This document shows, in pieces, positions 43,486-49,271 of a stretch of DNA of 64,000 nt. The notes beneath the pieces were generated by a model. That model ran no database searches. It was not told the origin of the DNA and saw nothing but the letters and a program-made list of their open reading frames with translations. Origin of the DNA: an uncultured Flavobacteriaceae bacterium (GTDB taxonomy: Bacteria > Bacteroidota > Bacteroidia > Flavobacteriales > Flavobacteriaceae). Positions within the stretch are counted from its first letter, which is position 1. Every line of letters begins with the position of its first letter. The translations under genes were made by a program, and so were the position numbers. Where the stretch lies: the NCBI GenBank assembly GCA_947501845.1, contig CANMXP010000008.1:144782-208781 (forward strand), written 5' to 3'.

Positions 43486-44107
43486 AATGATTTGGTTTTA
43501 AAATTACAGGGTGCAATTAATTACTTTTTACAATCAATTTTAGATCAATTTTCATCACAAATCAGTCAATTAAACCTTATAATCTGTTTTAGCAAACCAC
43601 AAAATATCACAAACCGATCAACCGAAATCACAAATTGGTCATTTGTCAATTTTACGTTTTTCTGATGCAGAATTTACTTTGGGTTTTATCTATGGACTAT
43701 CTGTTAAAAAATCCCTCAAAATTGATATATGCTTAATTGGTGCAAATGGAGATACCAATAAACTACATTTAACATTTAAATAGGTAATTTCATAAAACTT
43801 TCAATTCTCCTGTATCAAGAACATAAATAATGTAATTAATTTTAGTGCTTATCCAAAATGCTACAAACCCATGAATTTTTCAAACCAACTACCTTTCCAA
43901 CTCCATAAATATTTTTAGTTAAAGCCTAATTGTAAAGCAGACAAAAACACCATTCTTTCTAACTTACAATAACAAAACATTCTGCTTAGAATTTACCCTA
44001 AACCAATAATTGTTGTAAAACCAATAAATTAATTTTAGGTTTTTTATTAATTTGACAATAAAAATTGTAGGCAAGGAAAAAATGATGTTTACTAAATTTA
44101 TTCTACA
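43486..44107. other. 622-bp gap, mostly AT-rich, with a possible coding relic
   Basis: It holds the 5' side of the LRR gene, the possible remnant at 43661-43783 and the upstream region of the gat leader promoter. I see no tRNA-like fold, intact ORF or repeat array in the rest. Confidence 0.5.
43661..43783 (+). pseudogene. Possible gene remnant, about 40 codons
   Basis: The plus frame reads SDAEFTLGFIYGLSVKKSLK, then IDICLIGANGDTNKLHLTFK and stops at TAG 43781-43783. Composition is protein-like, but no start codon or recognisable family is found. It may be the decayed end of a gene or chance. Confidence 0.25.
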
Positions 44108-44115
44108 TATCTTTG
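44108..44115 (+). promoter_or_regulatory. -7 box TATCTTTG of the gat operon leader
   Basis: TATCTTTG matches TAnnTTTG and lies 17 bases before the leader-peptide ATG, so the transcript would start around 44119-44122. No convincing -33 TTTG at 19-21 bp. Confidence 0.5.
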
Positions 44116-44132
44116 ACAACAGATAAAGTATT

Positions 44133-44180
44133 ATGACAAAAAATAACAACAATAATAATTTCAATAATCCTAATGTTTAG
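44133..44180 (+). CDS. Asparagine-rich leader peptide of the gat operon
   Basis: A 15-codon ORF: MTKNNNNNNFNNPNV. Nine codons specify Asn, six of them consecutive (44142-44159), with both AAT and AAC used. It starts shortly after a -7 box and ends 3 bases before the antiterminator arm. This is the arrangement of his, phe or ilv attenuator leaders, here with Asn as the sensed residue. The downstream operon makes Asn-tRNA(Asn). Leader function is inferred; the sequence pattern itself is plain. Confidence 0.8.
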   Translation: MTKNNNNNNFNNPNV

Positions 44181-44182
44181 GA

Positions 44183-44239
44183 TCGGAAGGTTATTGTTTA
44201 AAAATATGTAAAGCCTTCCGAATTCGGAAGGCTTTTTTT
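44183..44239 (+). promoter_or_regulatory. Attenuator: mutually exclusive antiterminator and terminator before gatC
   Basis: The terminator is AAGCCTTCCG (44211-44220), loop AATT, CGGAAGGCTT (44225-44234), then TTTTT: 10 bp plus U tract. CGGAAGG also occurs at 44184-44190, so bases 44183-44192 can pair with 44212-44221 (10 bp, one G-U), which destroys the terminator. A ribosome at the leader stop (44178-44180) would cover 44184-44190 and permit termination; a ribosome stalled in the Asn codons would leave it free and permit read-through. Confidence 0.82.
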
Positions 44240-44259
44240 GTTAATTTAAAAATTAAGAC

Positions 44260-44526
44260 ATGAGTAAAATTATGACAGTCGATGTATTGTCGAGTATTAA
44301 AGGAGCACAGCCCTCTGAGGCTGTAAGTAAATTATTTGATGTGATTAAAAATGCACAAACAACAAATAATACCCCTAGTAATAATCATAATAATTGTGTG
44401 TCTTTAAATCATTTGAGAGCGGATGAAGTCATTGAAAGTTCTGCACTAGAAAAACAGATCATTAAAGACAATTTCCCTAAAGAGAAAAATGGCTATTTAG
44501 TGGTTTCTAAAGTTATAGATGCATAG
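44260..44526 (+). CDS. gatC: GatC-like subunit of Asp-tRNA(Asn)/Glu-tRNA(Gln) amidotransferase
   Basis: An 88-residue protein. Its last third (LRADEVIESSALEKQIIKDN, then FPKEKNGYLVVSKVID) matches the GatC C-terminus, where LREDxV...SREEAL...GYFVVPKVI is usual. The normal N-terminal two-helix part is not recognisable; instead there is a short helix and an Asn-rich linker (NAQTTNNTPSNNHNNCVSLN, residues 31-50). GatC holds GatA and GatB together. It is 3 bp upstream of gatA. Assignment rests on the C-terminus and context. ATG 44272 is an alternative start. Confidence 0.72.
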   Translation: MSKIMTVDVLSSIKGAQPSEAVSKLFDVIKNAQTTNNTPSNNHNNCVSLNHLRADEVIESSALEKQIIKDNFPKEKNGYLVVSKVIDA

Positions 44527-44529
44527 GTT

Positions 44530-45930
44530 ATGGAATCTCAAATACAACAAATTCATCGGCAGTTGGTGGACAAAGAAATTTCTTGTGTCGATTTAATTCA
44601 AGAAAAACTAAGTGCACTCAAAGAGAACACTTACAACACGGTAAACACTTTATTAACCGAATTAGCTTTAGAAAAGGCAGCCAAAGTAGATGCAAAAATT
44701 GCAAATGGAGATACTATTGGTTTGCTTGAAGGCGTTCCGTTTGGGATTAAAGATGTATATATGCTTCAAGGTACTTATGCAACAGCTAGCTCAGACTTAC
44801 TTAAAAAGTATAAATCGGCATATACGGCCACAGCCATTCAAAAACTATTGGATGCAGGCGCCATACCTATTGTAAAAGAAAACTGCGACAGTTTTGGTCA
44901 TGGGTCGTCTAGCGAAAACACCATATTTGGTGCTGTTAAAAACGCTATAAATCCAGAATTAGTTGGAGGGGGCTCTAGTGGAGGGTCTGCTGTGAACGTT
45001 GCTAAAGACCATACCGTTTTTTCTATTGGTGGCGACACTGGGGGGTCTGTACGACAACCTGCTGGTTATAATAATGTATATGGTTTAAAACCAACTTACG
45101 GACGTATTTCCCGTTACGGTTTAATGGCCTATGCATCATCAACAGACTGCGTTGGCCCTATAGCTAAATCTCCTGAAGATATACGCATTGTTCTGAATAC
45201 AATGAGTGGAAAAGATCCAAAAGACCAAACAACTTACAGTTCAGAAGCTATAAGCCAAGACAGCATTTTAAACACCGTAAACATTAAAACTGTTGGTTAT
45301 TTTAAAAACTTTATTGAAAGCGAAGCGATAGACGCCACTATTAAAAGTGATTTTCTAGCATCGATTGAAAAAATAAAAGCCAAAGGTATTCAAGTAAAAG
45401 AACTGGATTTCTTTAAATCTGACATCCTAGTTTCTACATATTACACCTTAGCAATGGCCGAAACTGCATCAAACCTATCACGTTTAGATGGCACCAATTA
45501 TGGCGACCGTGTTGATGATAAGGATTTAAAAGAATCTTATGCCGTGACACGATCTGAAAAATTCTCGGAAGAAACCAAACGCAGAATAGTTGGTGGTAAT
45601 CAGGTATTATCCCAAGGATTTTCCGATGAAATATATTTAAAAGGTCTGGCCTTAAGGGATGCCATTTCTGAAAATTTTGAAAAAGATTTTGGAGATGTTG
45701 ATATTATCTTATCGCCAGTTACACCAAACACGCCTCCTAAAATTGGAGACAGCTTAAAAGATCCTTTAACCATGTATTTATCTGATGCTTACACGGTAGG
45801 TTTTAGTCTAGGACAACTACCAACTTTAACCGTTCCTCAAGGCACAGAAACAGGTTTACAGGTTACAGCAGCAAAAAATAATGACGAACTCGTTTTGAAG
45901 TTTGCTAACTTCTTAAAAGACACGATATAA
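44530..45930 (+). CDS. gatA: Asp-tRNA(Asn)/Glu-tRNA(Gln) amidotransferase subunit A
   Basis: A 466-residue amidase that releases ammonia from glutamine for tRNA-dependent amidation. The catalytic triad of the amidase-signature family is intact: K74 in FGIKDVY, Ser149 in GGGSSGGSA (cis-Ser) and nucleophile Ser173 in GGDTGGSVRQP, with the canonical spacings of 75 and 24 residues. Length is normal. The gatB-aspS start codon overlaps its stop (TAATGG), so the genes are translationally coupled. Confidence 0.95.
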   Translation: MESQIQQIHRQLVDKEISCVDLIQEKLSALKENTYNTVNTLLTELALEKAAKVDAKIANGDTIGLLEGVPFGIKDVYMLQGTYATASSDLLKKYKSAYTATAIQKLLDAGAIPIVKENCDSFGHGSSSENTIFGAVKNAINPELVGGGSSGGSAVNVAKDHTVFSIGGDTGGSVRQPAGYNNVYGLKPTYGRISRYGLMAYASSTDCVGPIAKSPEDIRIVLNTMSGKDPKDQTTYSSEAISQDSILNTVNIKTVGYFKNFIESEAIDATIKSDFLASIEKIKAKGIQVKELDFFKSDILVSTYYTLAMAETASNLSRLDGTNYGDRVDDKDLKESYAVTRSEKFSEETKRRIVGGNQVLSQGFSDEIYLKGLALRDAISENFEKDFGDVDIILSPVTPNTPPKIGDSLKDPLTMYLSDAYTVGFSLGQLPTLTVPQGTETGLQVTAAKNNDELVLKFANFLKDTI

Positions 45931-48900
45931 TGGAACTTGATCAATTAGACGCGGCATTAAAAGCCCACGAATTAGAATTGGTAATCGGACTGGAAACACA
46001 CGTACGATTAAATACCAAAACCAAGTTGTTTTGTTCTTGTCCTAATCAAGAAATGGAAACACCAAACGAAAATATATGTTCTGTTTGCACAGGGCAAATG
46101 GGGGTACTGCCTGCCATTAATAAAGAAGCTATCAATAAAGCCATTTATTTTGGAAAAGCTGTAAAATCATCTTTTGAAAACGAAGTGATTTCCTGGGACA
46201 GAAAACATTATGAGTACCCAGATAACCCTAAGAACATTCAAATTACGCAATTTCATAACCCAATCATACCAGATGGGCAAGTTTCGTGTTTCCGAAATGA
46301 CGGGTCTCAATTTACGGTTAACTTAACCCAAGTGCATATTGAGGAAGATGCTGCTAAATTAGTTCATGAAAAAGCAGTATCTCTGGTCGATTTTAATAAA
46401 GCTGGTGTACCACTTATTGAAATTGTAACAGAGCCATGTATTCGCCATATTGAAGACGCTTCAATTTATGCGCAATACATTCAGCGTATTGTACAGAATT
46501 TAAAAATATCTGAAGCAAATCTTGAAAAGGGTGAGTTCAAATCGGATGTTTCTGTATCGCTTCGTAAAAAACACAGCTATAATTTAAATCCGCGTACCGA
46601 AATAAAAAACTTAAACTCATTTAAGTTTATGGTAGAGGCTTTAAAAGAAGAGGTTGAAAAACAATTCAACTATTATATCGAACATAAGGAGTTCCGACCA
46701 GAACAAACCACCGTTTTATGGGATGCCGAGCTAAAGCAAACTAAAACGATGCGTAAAAAAGAGTTTGAAGCCGATTATCGCTTCATCTCAGAACCAGATT
46801 TGCCTTTTGTTTCAATTAAAGACGTTGTAGATGCTATTCAGGTAGATACCAGCACGCTTCCTTATGCCGTAGAATCTATTTTAATTAAAGGCGGTGTATT
46901 ACCGCAGGATGCTAAGTTTTTCACAGCAGACTCATTGCGTTCCAAGACCTTTATTACTATAAACAATGTGCTTAAAGACCCTTCTTTTGTCGCCAAAACA
47001 TTGGTAAATAATATTGGGGCAGACGAGTATGCAGAGATACATCGAATAGAACATCTTATTGAGATTTTTCAGCTATTTAAAGATGAAAAAATAACATCTG
47101 TATTGGTTCAAAATGCCATTACGTCCTATCTAAAAGACCGAGATTTTGATTATAATAAGTATTTTGAAGATAACACCATTTCAGAATCTCAAATTCAAGA
47201 TGCTATTTCAAAAGTAATTTCTGAAAATGAAGCTATTGCGAACGACATTAAAGCTGGAAACCAAGGCAAAGCAGGTATTCTTGTTGGTAAAGTCATCGCC
47301 ATTATTGGTAAAGGCGCCTCTGGAAAAGTAATTCGCGAAGGCGTTCTTAGTCAGTTACAAGGTTCTGGATTAGAGGCTCAAAGTGACTCAACAACACAAA
47401 AAGAAGAGCCAACAACCAATAACCAAGACCCTACAGCGAAAGCGCAAGAAGAGGTATTGCCTGAGATTCCTATTGTTATAAAAGATGAATACAGAACGCA
47501 TTTAATTTCTGATATTTCTGAAGAAAACATTTCTGAAGAAGTTACTTTTTCAGGATGGGTATCGAGTGTTCGCGATCATGGCGAACTTATTTTTATCGAT
47601 TTACGAGATTCCAGCAATGAGGTTTTTCAAGTACGTTTAAGCAGAGAATCATTCCCTAATTTGGACGAGTTGGTAAAATTAAAACCAGAATCGGTTATTA
47701 CAGTTACAGGAACGCTTGTACAGCGTAAAGAAGATGATTACAACGCTGCTTTAAGAACTGGTAAAATAGAACTAGAAACAGCTTCTCTAGAGATTTTAAA
47801 TCTTTCTAGAACACTTCCCTTTGAAATAAAAAGAGCAACAAAAACAAATGAAACCACACGTTTTCAATATAAATATTTAGATCACAGGAACGATGATGTT
47901 CGCAGGGTTATTGTGAACCGTCACAAAGTGATTAAGATGATGCGCGATATTTTAGATGAACAAAATTTCTTAGAAATAGAAACACCTATTTTAAGTGCAG
48001 GAACAGATGAAGGCGCCAGAGAATTCATAGTTCCAACTCGTAAACAAGCTGGCGCATTCTACACATTACCTCAAGCGCCTCAGCAATTTAAACAAATGTT
48101 GATGGTGAGTGGTTATGAAAAGTATTTCCAAATTGCCCGTTGTTTTAGAGACGAAGATTCCCGTGGCGATCGCCAACCAGAATTCACACAGTTGGACATA
48201 GAAATGGCTTATGCCAGCATGCAACAAATTATAGATTTGAATACCAATATGTTCAATGATATCGTTAAGAAAATATACGGTAAAAAATGGATTTTACATC
48301 CCTTTGAGGTGCTTACCTACAAAGAGGCCATGGACCAATATGGTTGTGACAGACCCGATTTACGTTTTGGCTTGCCATTACAAGACATAACGGATATTGT
48401 AAAAGACACCACTTTTCAGGTATTTAGCAAGCCTATTGACGAAGGCGGTATTGTAAAGTGCATTAAAGTATCTGCTGAAGAACAAGGAAAAAAGCGTTTA
48501 TCTAAAGGACAAATAGAAAAGCTAACAGCTATTGCACAACAGCATGGCTTAGGAGGTTTAGCGTATATTATTGTTAATGAAAACGATTTACAATCGCCAA
48601 TCATTAAGTTTTTAGGTGAAGATATTGCGTCTGGTATTATTAAGGCTACCAACGCAAAGTTGGGTGATGTCGTATTTTTCTCTGCTGCCGATTATGCAAC
48701 TGCAAATAAAGCACTAGATGCTGTTCGTCAAGAACTTGGTAGTATGCTACGCTTAATCAACCCGAAGGAATTGCGTCCTGCTTGGGTTATAGATTTCCCT
48801 ATGTTTGAAAAAACAGATGAAGGACGTTGGACGTTTACCCATAATCCATTCTCAATGCCAGCAATTTACGATATCGAGAAGCATATGAATGGCAAGGAAG

Positions 48901-49271
48901 AAGAAATAGGAAGCATTATTGCACAACAATACGACCTCATCTTAAACGGCTACGAAATAGGCGGCGGCTCTGTTCGTGCCCATAAACCTGAGATTTTAGA
49001 AGCTACCTATAAAAATATGGGGTACAATAAGGCAGATATGCTTAAAAGTGTTGGTACCATGTATAAATCCTTCCATTATGGCGCTCCTCCTCACGGTGGT
49101 ATTGCCTGGGGTATTGACAGGTTGATGATGATATTAGAGAAAAAAGCCTCTATTCGAGAAGTCATGGCATTCCCTAAAACAGGAACCAGCGAAGATTTAT
49201 TATTTGGAGCTCCATCTGTATTATCAGACAAAAAGATTGAAGAAATGAATGTAAAAGTGATGAAAAAATAG
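45930..49271 (+). CDS. gatB-aspS: Fusion protein: amidotransferase subunit GatB + aspartyl-tRNA synthetase
   Basis: A 1113-residue fusion. Residues 1-475 are GatB: zinc Cys at 35, 37, 50 and 53 (CSC...CSVC), DRKHYEYPDNPKNIQITQ, FNKAGVPLIEIVTEP, and a C-terminal YqeY-like tRNA-binding tail ending ASGKVIREGVLSQLQ. A Ser/Thr/Gln/Glu-rich linker (about 476-515) leads to a complete bacterial-type AspRS: anticodon-binding OB fold (FSGWVSSVRDHGELIFIDLR), class II motif 2 (RCFRDEDSRGDRQPEFTQ), a GAD insertion, and motif 3 (GAPPHGGIAWGIDRLMMIL). One chain would aspartylate tRNA and amidate the product. Confidence 0.96.
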   Translation: MELDQLDAALKAHELELVIGLETHVRLNTKTKLFCSCPNQEMETPNENICSVCTGQMGVLPAINKEAINKAIYFGKAVKSSFENEVISWDRKHYEYPDNPKNIQITQFHNPIIPDGQVSCFRNDGSQFTVNLTQVHIEEDAAKLVHEKAVSLVDFNKAGVPLIEIVTEPCIRHIEDASIYAQYIQRIVQNLKISEANLEKGEFKSDVSVSLRKKHSYNLNPRTEIKNLNSFKFMVEALKEEVEKQFNYYIEHKEFRPEQTTVLWDAELKQTKTMRKKEFEADYRFISEPDLPFVSIKDVVDAIQVDTSTLPYAVESILIKGGVLPQDAKFFTADSLRSKTFITINNVLKDPSFVAKTLVNNIGADEYAEIHRIEHLIEIFQLFKDEKITSVLVQNAITSYLKDRDFDYNKYFEDNTISESQIQDAISKVISENEAIANDIKAGNQGKAGILVGKVIAIIGKGASGKVIREGVLSQLQGSGLEAQSDSTTQKEEPTTNNQDPTAKAQEEVLPEIPIVIKDEYRTHLISDISEENISEEVTFSGWVSSVRDHGELIFIDLRDSSNEVFQVRLSRESFPNLDELVKLKPESVITVTGTLVQRKEDDYNAALRTGKIELETASLEILNLSRTLPFEIKRATKTNETTRFQYKYLDHRNDDVRRVIVNRHKVIKMMRDILDEQNFLEIETPILSAGTDEGAREFIVPTRKQAGAFYTLPQAPQQFKQMLMVSGYEKYFQIARCFRDEDSRGDRQPEFTQLDIEMAYASMQQIIDLNTNMFNDIVKKIYGKKWILHPFEVLTYKEAMDQYGCDRPDLRFGLPLQDITDIVKDTTFQVFSKPIDEGGIVKCIKVSAEEQGKKRLSKGQIEKLTAIAQQHGLGGLAYIIVNENDLQSPIIKFLGEDIASGIIKATNAKLGDVVFFSAADYATANKALDAVRQELGSMLRLINPKELRPAWVIDFPMFEKTDEGRWTFTHNPFSMPAIYDIEKHMNGKEEEIGSIIAQQYDLILNGYEIGGGSVRAHKPEILEATYKNMGYNKADMLKSVGTMYKSFHYGAPPHGGIAWGIDRLMMILEKKASIREVMAFPKTGTSEDLLFGAPSVLSDKKIEEMNVKVMKK

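What the first reader, a model, noticed from the sequence alone, without database searches (positions are those of the whole stretch)
44108..44239. Asn-codon attenuator controlling an operon that makes Asn-tRNA(Asn)
Seen: a -7 box, a 15-codon ORF with nine Asn codons (six in a row), a stop codon 3 bases before CGGAAGG (44184-44190), and a strong terminator (44211-44234 plus T run) whose 5' arm can pair instead with 44183-44192 over 10 bp. Known: his, phe, thr and ilv leaders in Proteobacteria work this way. Inference: when Asn-tRNA(Asn) is scarce, the ribosome stalls in the Asn codons, the antiterminator forms and gatC-gatA-gatB/aspS is read; when it is plentiful, the ribosome reaches the stop, masks 44184-44190 and transcription ends. 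The regulated operon makes the sensed molecule. I know of no published description of an Asn leader before gat/aspS genes.
Basis: partly seen in the sequence, partly recalled or inferred. Interest (0 to 1): 0.93.

Follow-up and report, generated by a model that had tools for sequence, protein, structure and literature searches.

The report
Asparagine-codon attenuator for tRNA-made asparagine
In flavobacteria that lack the usual asparagine synthetases, the genes predicted to make asparagine directly on its tRNA often sit behind a conserved leader whose tiny gene is mostly asparagine codons, a switch that would likely let the genes be read when charged asparagine tRNA runs short.

Summary
A 15-codon ORF with nine Asn codons lies between a TATnTTTG box and an 11-bp terminator with an alternative 10-bp pairing, directly before gatC-gatA-gatB::aspS (gatB and aspS form one 1113-residue ORF). 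The same leader precedes gatC in 50 of 78 readable relatives. In 51 leaders 286 of 306 codons in the Asn run are Asn, and the stop codon lies 3-5 nt before the antiterminator core. Ribosome-position folding gives the antiterminator 0.97 with Asn codons in the A site and 0.003 at the stop. The genome also has AsnRS, GlnRS and a separate AspRS, but no asnA and no canonical asnB; in 149 Flavobacteriaceae, canonical AsnB is in 0 of 23 genomes with the fusion and 108 of 126 without. So the operon is most likely the de novo asparagine route, and the leader a his-type attenuator reading the pathway's own product, Asn-tRNA(Asn). Nine searches of open-licence papers showed no such leader; the nearest logic is a Clostridium T-box. 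Limits: no expression data; only the terminator covaries, mostly at one pair; naked RNA also favours the antiterminator in the model.

The parts
44108..44115 (+).
   Evidence: TATnTTTG invariant in 51 of 51 leaders aligned
44133..44180 (+). leader ORF MTKNNNNNNFNNPNV-stop, nine Asn codons
44148..44198 (+). predicted protector hairpin (1:2): AACAATAAT with GTTATTGTT, TTTC with GAAG
   Evidence: 97.7% of cells paired, no pair with changes on both sides
44167..44183 (+). small inner hairpin AUCCUAA/UUAGGAU that includes the stop codon
   Evidence: 89.1% of cells paired
44183..44192 (+). antiterminator arm (TCGGAAGGTT), can pair with the terminator 5' arm
   Evidence: each of the six core pairs GGAAGG:CCUUCC kept in 48-51 of 51, the two outer pairs in only about half
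44210..44239 (+). intrinsic terminator, 11 bp stem, loop AATT, then T run
44260..44526 (+). gatC-like gene
   Evidence: Pfam GatC just over its cut-off (23.6 of 23), NCBIfam gatC below cut-off (25.9 of 47.1)
44530..45930 (+). gatA-like gene
   Evidence: best NCBIfam hit gatA, below cut-off (424 of 481); best solved match P. aeruginosa GatA 4wj3 with the GGSSGGS and DTGGS stretches kept
45930..49271 (+). gatB::aspS fusion, 1113 aa: GatB residues ~14-477, linker ~478-517, bacterial-type AspRS with GAD domain ~518-1113

Best explanation
The leader at 44108-44239 is most likely a ribosome-read transcription attenuator that would open the gatC-gatA-gatB::aspS operon when Asn-tRNA(Asn) is scarce. 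Shown by sequence, in 51 distinct leaders: an Asn-codon ORF, a terminator, a conserved alternative pairing of the terminator's 5' arm, and a stop codon 3-5 nt before the core of that pairing. Inferred: a ribosome waiting at any of the nine Asn codons leaves 44183-44192 free, the antiterminator forms before the last terminator arm is made, and the polymerase reads on; a ribosome that reaches the stop codon covers that arm, the terminator forms and transcription ends. Also inferred: the operon charges tRNA(Asn) with Asp by its fused, probably non-discriminating AspRS and amidates it with GatCAB, which is the likely only de novo source of asparagine here, while AsnRS re-uses free asparagine. The pathway's own product, Asn-tRNA(Asn), would thus be the signal.
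For: Leader before gatC in 50 of 78 readable relatives; in 44 of 51 leaders it ends 17-23 nt before gatC, in the rest 40-185 nt. In 149 family genomes the model R1 scores 120 bits or more in 14, each before this operon, and at most 58.7 bits elsewhere (22 candidates scored per genome). At the six positions before Phe 286 of 306 codons are Asn and none is AAA or AAG, though after AA in the window A or G follows in 5087 of 8919 cases. Modelled antiterminator 0.974 with Asn codons in the A site, 0.003 with the stop; E. coli thrL, the one known attenuator tried, behaves likewise. Terminator: 19 cells changed on both sides, none of 500 shuffles as high. Canonical AsnB 0 of 23 fusion genomes, 108 of 126 others (Fisher 3.3e-16, not corrected for kinship); asnA 0 of 23; AsnRS and GlnRS present; in 43 genomes examined the only GatB is the fusion. 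tRNA(Asn) has U1-A72, needed for recognition by bacterial GatCAB according to PMC4206432 (passage). Same-genome precedent: an Ile/Val leader with terminator before ilvD.
Against: No transcript, ribosome-profiling or reporter data. Antiterminator and protector helices show no covariation beyond shuffles; of the terminator's 19 double changes 17 are at its loop-closing pair, which is unpaired in 13 of 51, and its number of pair types is not above shuffles (89 of 500). In the model, naked RNA ending before the last arm also prefers the antiterminator (mean 0.834), so termination without translation is not explained. The result at the stop depends on the assumed footprint: with an 11-nt edge the stop hardly masks (0.685), with 13 it does (0.09). 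28 of 78 relatives lack the leader. Nine of 23 fusion genomes carry another AsnB-family protein over the family cut-off. GatC and GatA are weak or sub-cut-off family matches. Non-discriminating AspRS activity rests on one residue whose meaning is recalled.
Confidence: 0.85

Rival explanations
1. The leader works as an attenuator, but the operon is not the de novo asparagine route: it would be a stress back-up or quality-control route, with asparagine made by another AsnB-family enzyme or taken up.
For: Nine of 23 fusion genomes have some AsnB-family protein over the cut-off, with open frames of 603-642 residues in the seven listed; AsnRS and an ordinary AspRS are present.
Against: 14 of 23 fusion genomes, the window's own included, have no AsnB over cut-off and none of 23 has asnA; canonical AsnB and the fusion exclude each other in the panel. 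GlnRS is present, so GatCAB is not needed for glutamine.
Confidence: 0.08
2. The stem at 44210-44235 is a constant partial terminator or makes a stable short RNA, and the Asn-rich ORF is a translated peptide with its own role; there is no codon-dependent switch.
For: The leader would end as an RNA of about 120 nt; no read-through data exist; the antiterminator shows no significant covariation.
Against: AAT/AAC alternation in the Asn run while residues at both ends of the peptide vary, the stop-to-core spacing of 3-5 nt and the alternative pairing fit codon-read attenuation better than a working peptide.
Confidence: 0.05
3. Another sensor, such as a T-box or other tRNA-binding RNA or a protein, reads the leader.
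For: A T-box does this job for tRNA-dependent asparagine synthesis in Clostridium acetobutylicum (seen only as titles in the reference list of PMC4206432).
Against: No Rfam family reaches its gathering score anywhere in the window; the conserved element contains a codon-conserved ORF.
Confidence: 0.02

Closest known systems
his/thr/ilv/phe/trp leader-peptide attenuators of Proteobacteria
   Same: Codon-rich leader ORF, terminator, antiterminator, masking by an advancing ribosome; E. coli thrL, the only one run here, gives the same kind of pattern in the model
   Different: Regulatory amino acid is Asn; host is a bacteroidete; the target is not a free amino acid pathway but makes the aminoacyl-tRNA itself
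[quoted passage not shown]
   Same: Same logic as far as the titles and recall tell: shortage of charged tRNA turns on the GatCAB/AspRS route
   Different: T-box binds tRNA directly; here a translating ribosome would read Asn codons. The papers are not held; titles only, via the reference list of PMC4206432
Dual-route organisms Deinococcus, Thermus, Bdellovibrio (PMC4206432)
   Same: AsnRS + GlnRS + GatCAB without AsnA/AsnB; asparagine made on tRNA
   Different: Deinococcus-Thermus use a separate archaeal-type second AspRS; here the second AspRS is bacterial-type (GAD domain) and fused to GatB. That paper's survey reports a second AspRS, among such genera without Asn synthetase, only in Deinococcus-Thermus (section 16 read)
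P. aeruginosa Asn-transamidosome (PDB 4wj3)
   Same: Its GatA is the best solved match of GatA here, its AspRS the third of the fused AspRS, its GatB the fifth of eight
   Different: Separate chains there; one GatB-AspRS chain here
Leader-peptide attenuation clues in Flavobacterium psychrophilum (PMC9723704)
   Same: Same family, leaders before amino-acid biosynthesis operons (passage)
   Different: Its main text holds none of the words asparagin-, asn, gatA, gatB, gatC, aspS, aspartyl (word searches); its supplements were not read

Membership tests
ribosome-mediated transcription attenuator | leader ORF rich in codons of the amino acid whose supply the operon serves | tested here: met
   9 of 15 codons Asn; 286 of 306 codons at the six positions before Phe are Asn in 51 leaders
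ribosome-mediated transcription attenuator | intrinsic terminator between promoter and first gene | tested here: met
   96.1% of cells paired, 19 cells changed on both sides (17 at the loop-closing pair), 0 of 500 shuffles reach it
ribosome-mediated transcription attenuator | antiterminator competing for the terminator's 5' arm | tested here: met
   10 pairs, 89.5% of cells paired in register versus at most 66.0% when slid; pairing predicted, not observed
ribosome-mediated transcription attenuator | covariation in the antiterminator | tested here: inconclusive
   core nearly invariant; no measure beats shuffles clearly
ribosome-mediated transcription attenuator | stop codon placed so that a finishing ribosome masks the antiterminator | tested here: met
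   spacing to the GGAAGG core 3-5 nt in 51 of 51; modelled 0.003 at stop with a 15-nt edge, 0.09 with 13, 0.685 with 11
ribosome-mediated transcription attenuator | protector hairpin that enforces termination without translation | tested here: inconclusive
   hairpin conserved, but naked RNA before arm 4 prefers the antiterminator, mean 0.834
ribosome-mediated transcription attenuator | read-through depends on charging of the cognate tRNA | not testable with these tools
   needs reporter or term-seq
tRNA-dependent asparagine biosynthesis (Deinococcus/Thermus/Bdellovibrio type) | AsnRS and GlnRS present, AsnA and AsnB absent | tested here: met
   own genome (99.96% complete): AsnRS and GlnRS over cut-off, no asnA, no AsnB over cut-off, no canonical AsnB
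tRNA-dependent asparagine biosynthesis (Deinococcus/Thermus/Bdellovibrio type) | complete GatCAB | tested here: met
   GatB over NCBIfam cut-off; GatA best hit but below cut-off; GatC over the Pfam cut-off only
tRNA-dependent asparagine biosynthesis (Deinococcus/Thermus/Bdellovibrio type) | non-discriminating AspRS | tested here: inconclusive
   RDHG as in P. aeruginosa 4wj3 in 22 of 22 fusions read; own AspRS1 has RDKG, Thermus AspRS1 RDLG; that this His marks relaxed specificity is recalled
tRNA-dependent asparagine biosynthesis (Deinococcus/Thermus/Bdellovibrio type) | tRNA(Asn) with U1-A72 | tested here: met
   tRNA-Asn at own C3:57016 has acceptor stem UCCUUCU/AGAAGGA; tRNA-Asp at C3:324321 has G1-C72; a second tRNA-Asn in a tRNA array starts with G
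T-box | Rfam T-box match | tested here: not met
   0 Rfam matches over gathering score in the window

The most novel reading that the evidence does not exclude
A first Asn-codon attenuator, and a leader-peptide switch whose sensed molecule, Asn-tRNA(Asn), is the direct product of the enzyme it controls: a one-step homeostat in which a fused GatB-AspRS transamidosome, the sole de novo source of asparagine, is opened and closed by the ribosome's demand for its own product, with AsnRS reduced to salvage.
Probability: 0.72. Interest if true: 0.82.

Novelty: new variant of a known kind. Interest (0 to 1): 0.74.

Why it matters
It would add asparagine to the amino acids sensed by leader peptides, show classical attenuation at work in Bacteroidota, and give the shortest such loop known to me: the ribosome senses the very aminoacyl-tRNA that the controlled enzymes make. 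It would also explain how a cell with both routes to Asn-tRNA divides the work: AsnRS for asparagine at hand, GatCAB plus the fused AspRS when it runs out. The mutual exclusion with asparagine synthetase makes the role of the fused operon directly testable by one deletion and one growth test. The GatB-AspRS fusion is a possible covalent transamidosome for structure work.

Tried and rejected
T-box or other known RNA family: none in the window. Chance ORF: rejected. Terminator of an upstream gene: judged unlikely, nearest upstream gene-sized ORF is on the other strand. Operon for Gln-tRNA: rejected as main role, GlnRS over cut-off in 43 of 43 genomes examined. Leader elsewhere in genomes: of the matches under 60 bits, five were read. 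By eye, four look like ordinary terminators after genes and one is an ilvD leader (ilvD named); the other weak matches were not read, and that search scored only 22 candidates per genome. G124 looked like a leader without the fusion but is the same operon cut by a contig end. Covariation for the antiterminator and protector: sought, not found. Row drops: G140 had no upstream sequence (22 of 23 fusion operons read); L125 and L137 had no gatC (78 of 80); eight weak matches (at most 38.3 bits; seven antisense beside real leaders, one in L121) were left out of the 51. Four of the 108 canonical AsnB matches (G016, G031, G094, G111) are only 50-51% identical and one (G048) is partial. The Saad 2012 and 2013 papers are not held. 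No structure prediction, fold search or homologous-protein search was run.

Full report
What is in the sequence. The window shows, on the + strand, TATCTTTG (44108-44115), a 15-codon ORF (44133-44180) reading MTKNNNNNNFNNPNV, and a terminator of 11 pairs at 44210-44235 with a T run. The stretch 44108-44245 folds 5.8 sd below dinucleotide shuffles. No other ATG ORF of 10-30 codons with at least half Asn exists on either strand, and 100 Markov-1 sequences of the same length held none. The next genes are gatC-like (44260-44526), gatA-like (44530-45930) and one ORF of 1113 residues (45930-49271) that is GatB fused to a bacterial-type AspRS with a GAD domain. GatC is a weak match (over the Pfam cut-off, under the NCBIfam one) and GatA is under its NCBIfam cut-off, but residues 5-445 of 466 of GatA align to P. 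aeruginosa GatA (4wj3) with the GGSSGGS and DTGGS stretches kept.

Conservation. The full-length fusion occurs in 23 of 149 Flavobacteriaceae genomes examined. Upstream sequence was readable for 22 of these 23; 13 of 22 have the Asn leader. In 51 leaders, window included, the leader ends 17-23 nt before gatC in 44, 40-68 nt in six and 185 nt in one. The closest named relatives are Flavivirga (93-95% identical), so the window is probably a Flavivirga. In the family panel the model finds 14 of 149 genomes at 120 bits or more, 13 with the fusion and one (G124) where the contig ends within gatA; nothing else exceeds 58.7 bits, though only 22 candidates per genome were scored. The usual peptide is M-x-N5-7-F-N-N-P-N-x. 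On a FastTree of 79 fusion proteins the leader needs 8 changes (at least 7 by well-supported branches; shuffles average 23), so it was gained or lost several times.

Selection for Asn. In 51 distinct leaders the six codons before Phe hold 286 Asn of 306; the seventh holds 19 of 51. Of 311 codons starting AA in these seven positions, 305 end in T or C and 6, all at the seventh, in A, though after AA in the window A or G follows in 5087 of 8919 cases. AAT and AAC alternate, most at the fifth (25:23) and fourth (8:42) codon before Phe. So the amino acid, not only the RNA, seems to be held. The Phe and Pro codons sit in the predicted protector hairpin (TTTC with GAAG; ATCCTAA with TTAGGAT), which may explain why they hardly vary; that link is inferred.

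Structure. The terminator is kept in 96.1% of cells with 19 cells changed on both sides, beyond all 500 shuffles, but 17 of the 19 are at the loop-closing pair, which is unpaired in 13 of 51, and the number of pair types is not above shuffles (89 of 500 as high). The antiterminator (44183-44192 with the terminator's 5' arm) pairs in 89.5% of cells and falls to at most 66.0% when slid, but does not covary beyond shuffles; its two outer pairs fail in about half of the leaders. The protector hairpin pairs in 94.7% with no double changes. These two rest on conservation, not covariation.

Ribosome position model. I folded each of 51 leaders up to the terminator loop with a ribosome footprint held unpaired. 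With Asn codons in the A site the antiterminator core has mean probability 0.974 (lowest leader 0.513); with the stop codon in the A site 0.003 (highest 0.080); without ribosome 0.834. The outcome at the stop depends on the downstream edge: 0.685, 0.09, 0.003 and 0.000 for 11, 13, 15 and 17 nt. The one known attenuator tried, E. coli thrL, gives 0.99 or more for A sites up to codon 15, 0.52 at codon 16, 0 from codon 17 on, and 0.43 without ribosome. The high value for naked RNA means that the model does not show why an untranslated leader would terminate.

What the operon does. The own genome has AsnRS, GlnRS and a separate AspRS. GatB over cut-off is present once, as the fusion, in 23 of 23 fusion genomes, and absent in 20 of 20 non-fusion genomes examined. 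asnA is in 0 of 23 fusion and 3 of 20 non-fusion genomes. AsnB over the general family cut-off is missing in 14 of 23 fusion genomes, the own genome included; the other nine have some AsnB-family protein, with frames of 603-642 residues in the seven listed. With a canonical AsnB as query at E up to 1e-150, matches are in 108 of 149 genomes: 0 of 23 with the fusion and 108 of 126 without (Fisher 3.3e-16, not corrected for kinship); four of the 108 are only 50-51% identical and one is partial. Of the 18 non-fusion genomes without it, six have asnA, one is G124, which holds the operon, and 11 have neither; 10 of these 11 are 96% complete or less. The main tRNA(Asn) has U1-A72 and tRNA(Asp) G1-C72. 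[quoted passage not shown] The fused AspRS has RDHG in 22 of 22 read, as in the P. aeruginosa enzyme of 4wj3, deposited as Asp/Asn ligase; the own second AspRS has RDKG and Thermus AspRS1 RDLG. I recall that this His marks relaxed specificity; word searches in two papers did not confirm the residue.

Mechanism. Put together: asparagine is most likely made on tRNA by the operon, re-used by AsnRS, and the operon is most likely opened when Asn-tRNA(Asn) is short, by stalling in the Asn run. The same genome carries an Ile/Val-rich leader (MKKQILNIVSIIVIVIISQQ) with a like terminator before ilvD; in the same model its antiterminator reaches 0.69-0.78 for A sites at codons 8-15 and about 0 before codon 6, after codon 15 and without ribosome. 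So this kind of control seems to be at home here.

Relation to what is known. Leader-peptide attenuators are an old kind. PMC2965389 (passages) knew none outside Proteobacteria and Actinobacteria, an erm leader apart, before its own Firmicutes case in 2010; PMC9723704 (passages) reports clues in Flavobacterium without naming asparagine. My searches for an Asn leader and for a GatB-AspRS fusion listed no description; they cover open-licence PMC texts only, and I judged most results by title and abstract. PMC2494555 (passages) found no T-boxes before amidotransferase genes in its set, but the later Clostridium T-box papers, known to me by title and recall only, describe a like logic with another sensor.

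Noticed in passing
L176:2599-2661 (own genome C3, near 344098): A second attenuator-like leader, MKKQILNIVSIIVIVIISQQ (11 of 20 I/L/V), with terminator, before an ilvD gene.
   Followed up: partly
45930-49271: GatB and AspRS fused in one chain with a linker of about 40 residues; a possible covalent transamidosome, present in 23 of 149 family genomes.
   Followed up: partly
leaderless loci, e.g. L121, L134, L141, about 25-60 nt before gatC: Many relatives without the leader share a block like AAAACTTT[CT]GTAATTTTG...CTTAAAAGTTT, an inverted AAACTTT/AAAGTTT around a TAnnTTTG-like box; a different promoter or operator for the same operon.
   Followed up: no
44365-44394: GatC itself carries an Asn-rich stretch (NNTPSNNHNN), with a like stretch in G124; its translation would feel asparagine shortage too.
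   Followed up: no
44040-44058: A block TTTTTTATTAATTTGACAA upstream of the -7 box is moderately conserved among leader-bearing loci; possible promoter or activator site.
   Followed up: no
own genome C7, about 190-194.6 kb (L152, L178): An array with 16 tRNA genes in one 3-kb stretch, including a second tRNA-Asn that starts with G; possibly a mobile or phage tRNA array.
   Followed up: no
Polaribacter leaders L103, L112, L113, L117, L128, L129, L131: Seven of 51 leaders have an Arg codon CGT in place of one Asn in the run; six of the seven have GTTGTTG facing it where most leaders have GTTATTG, the seventh GTCGTTG.
   Followed up: no
L141: Record titled Lentimicrobium MAG has a fusion nested among Flavobacterium; probably a binning error.
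   Followed up: no
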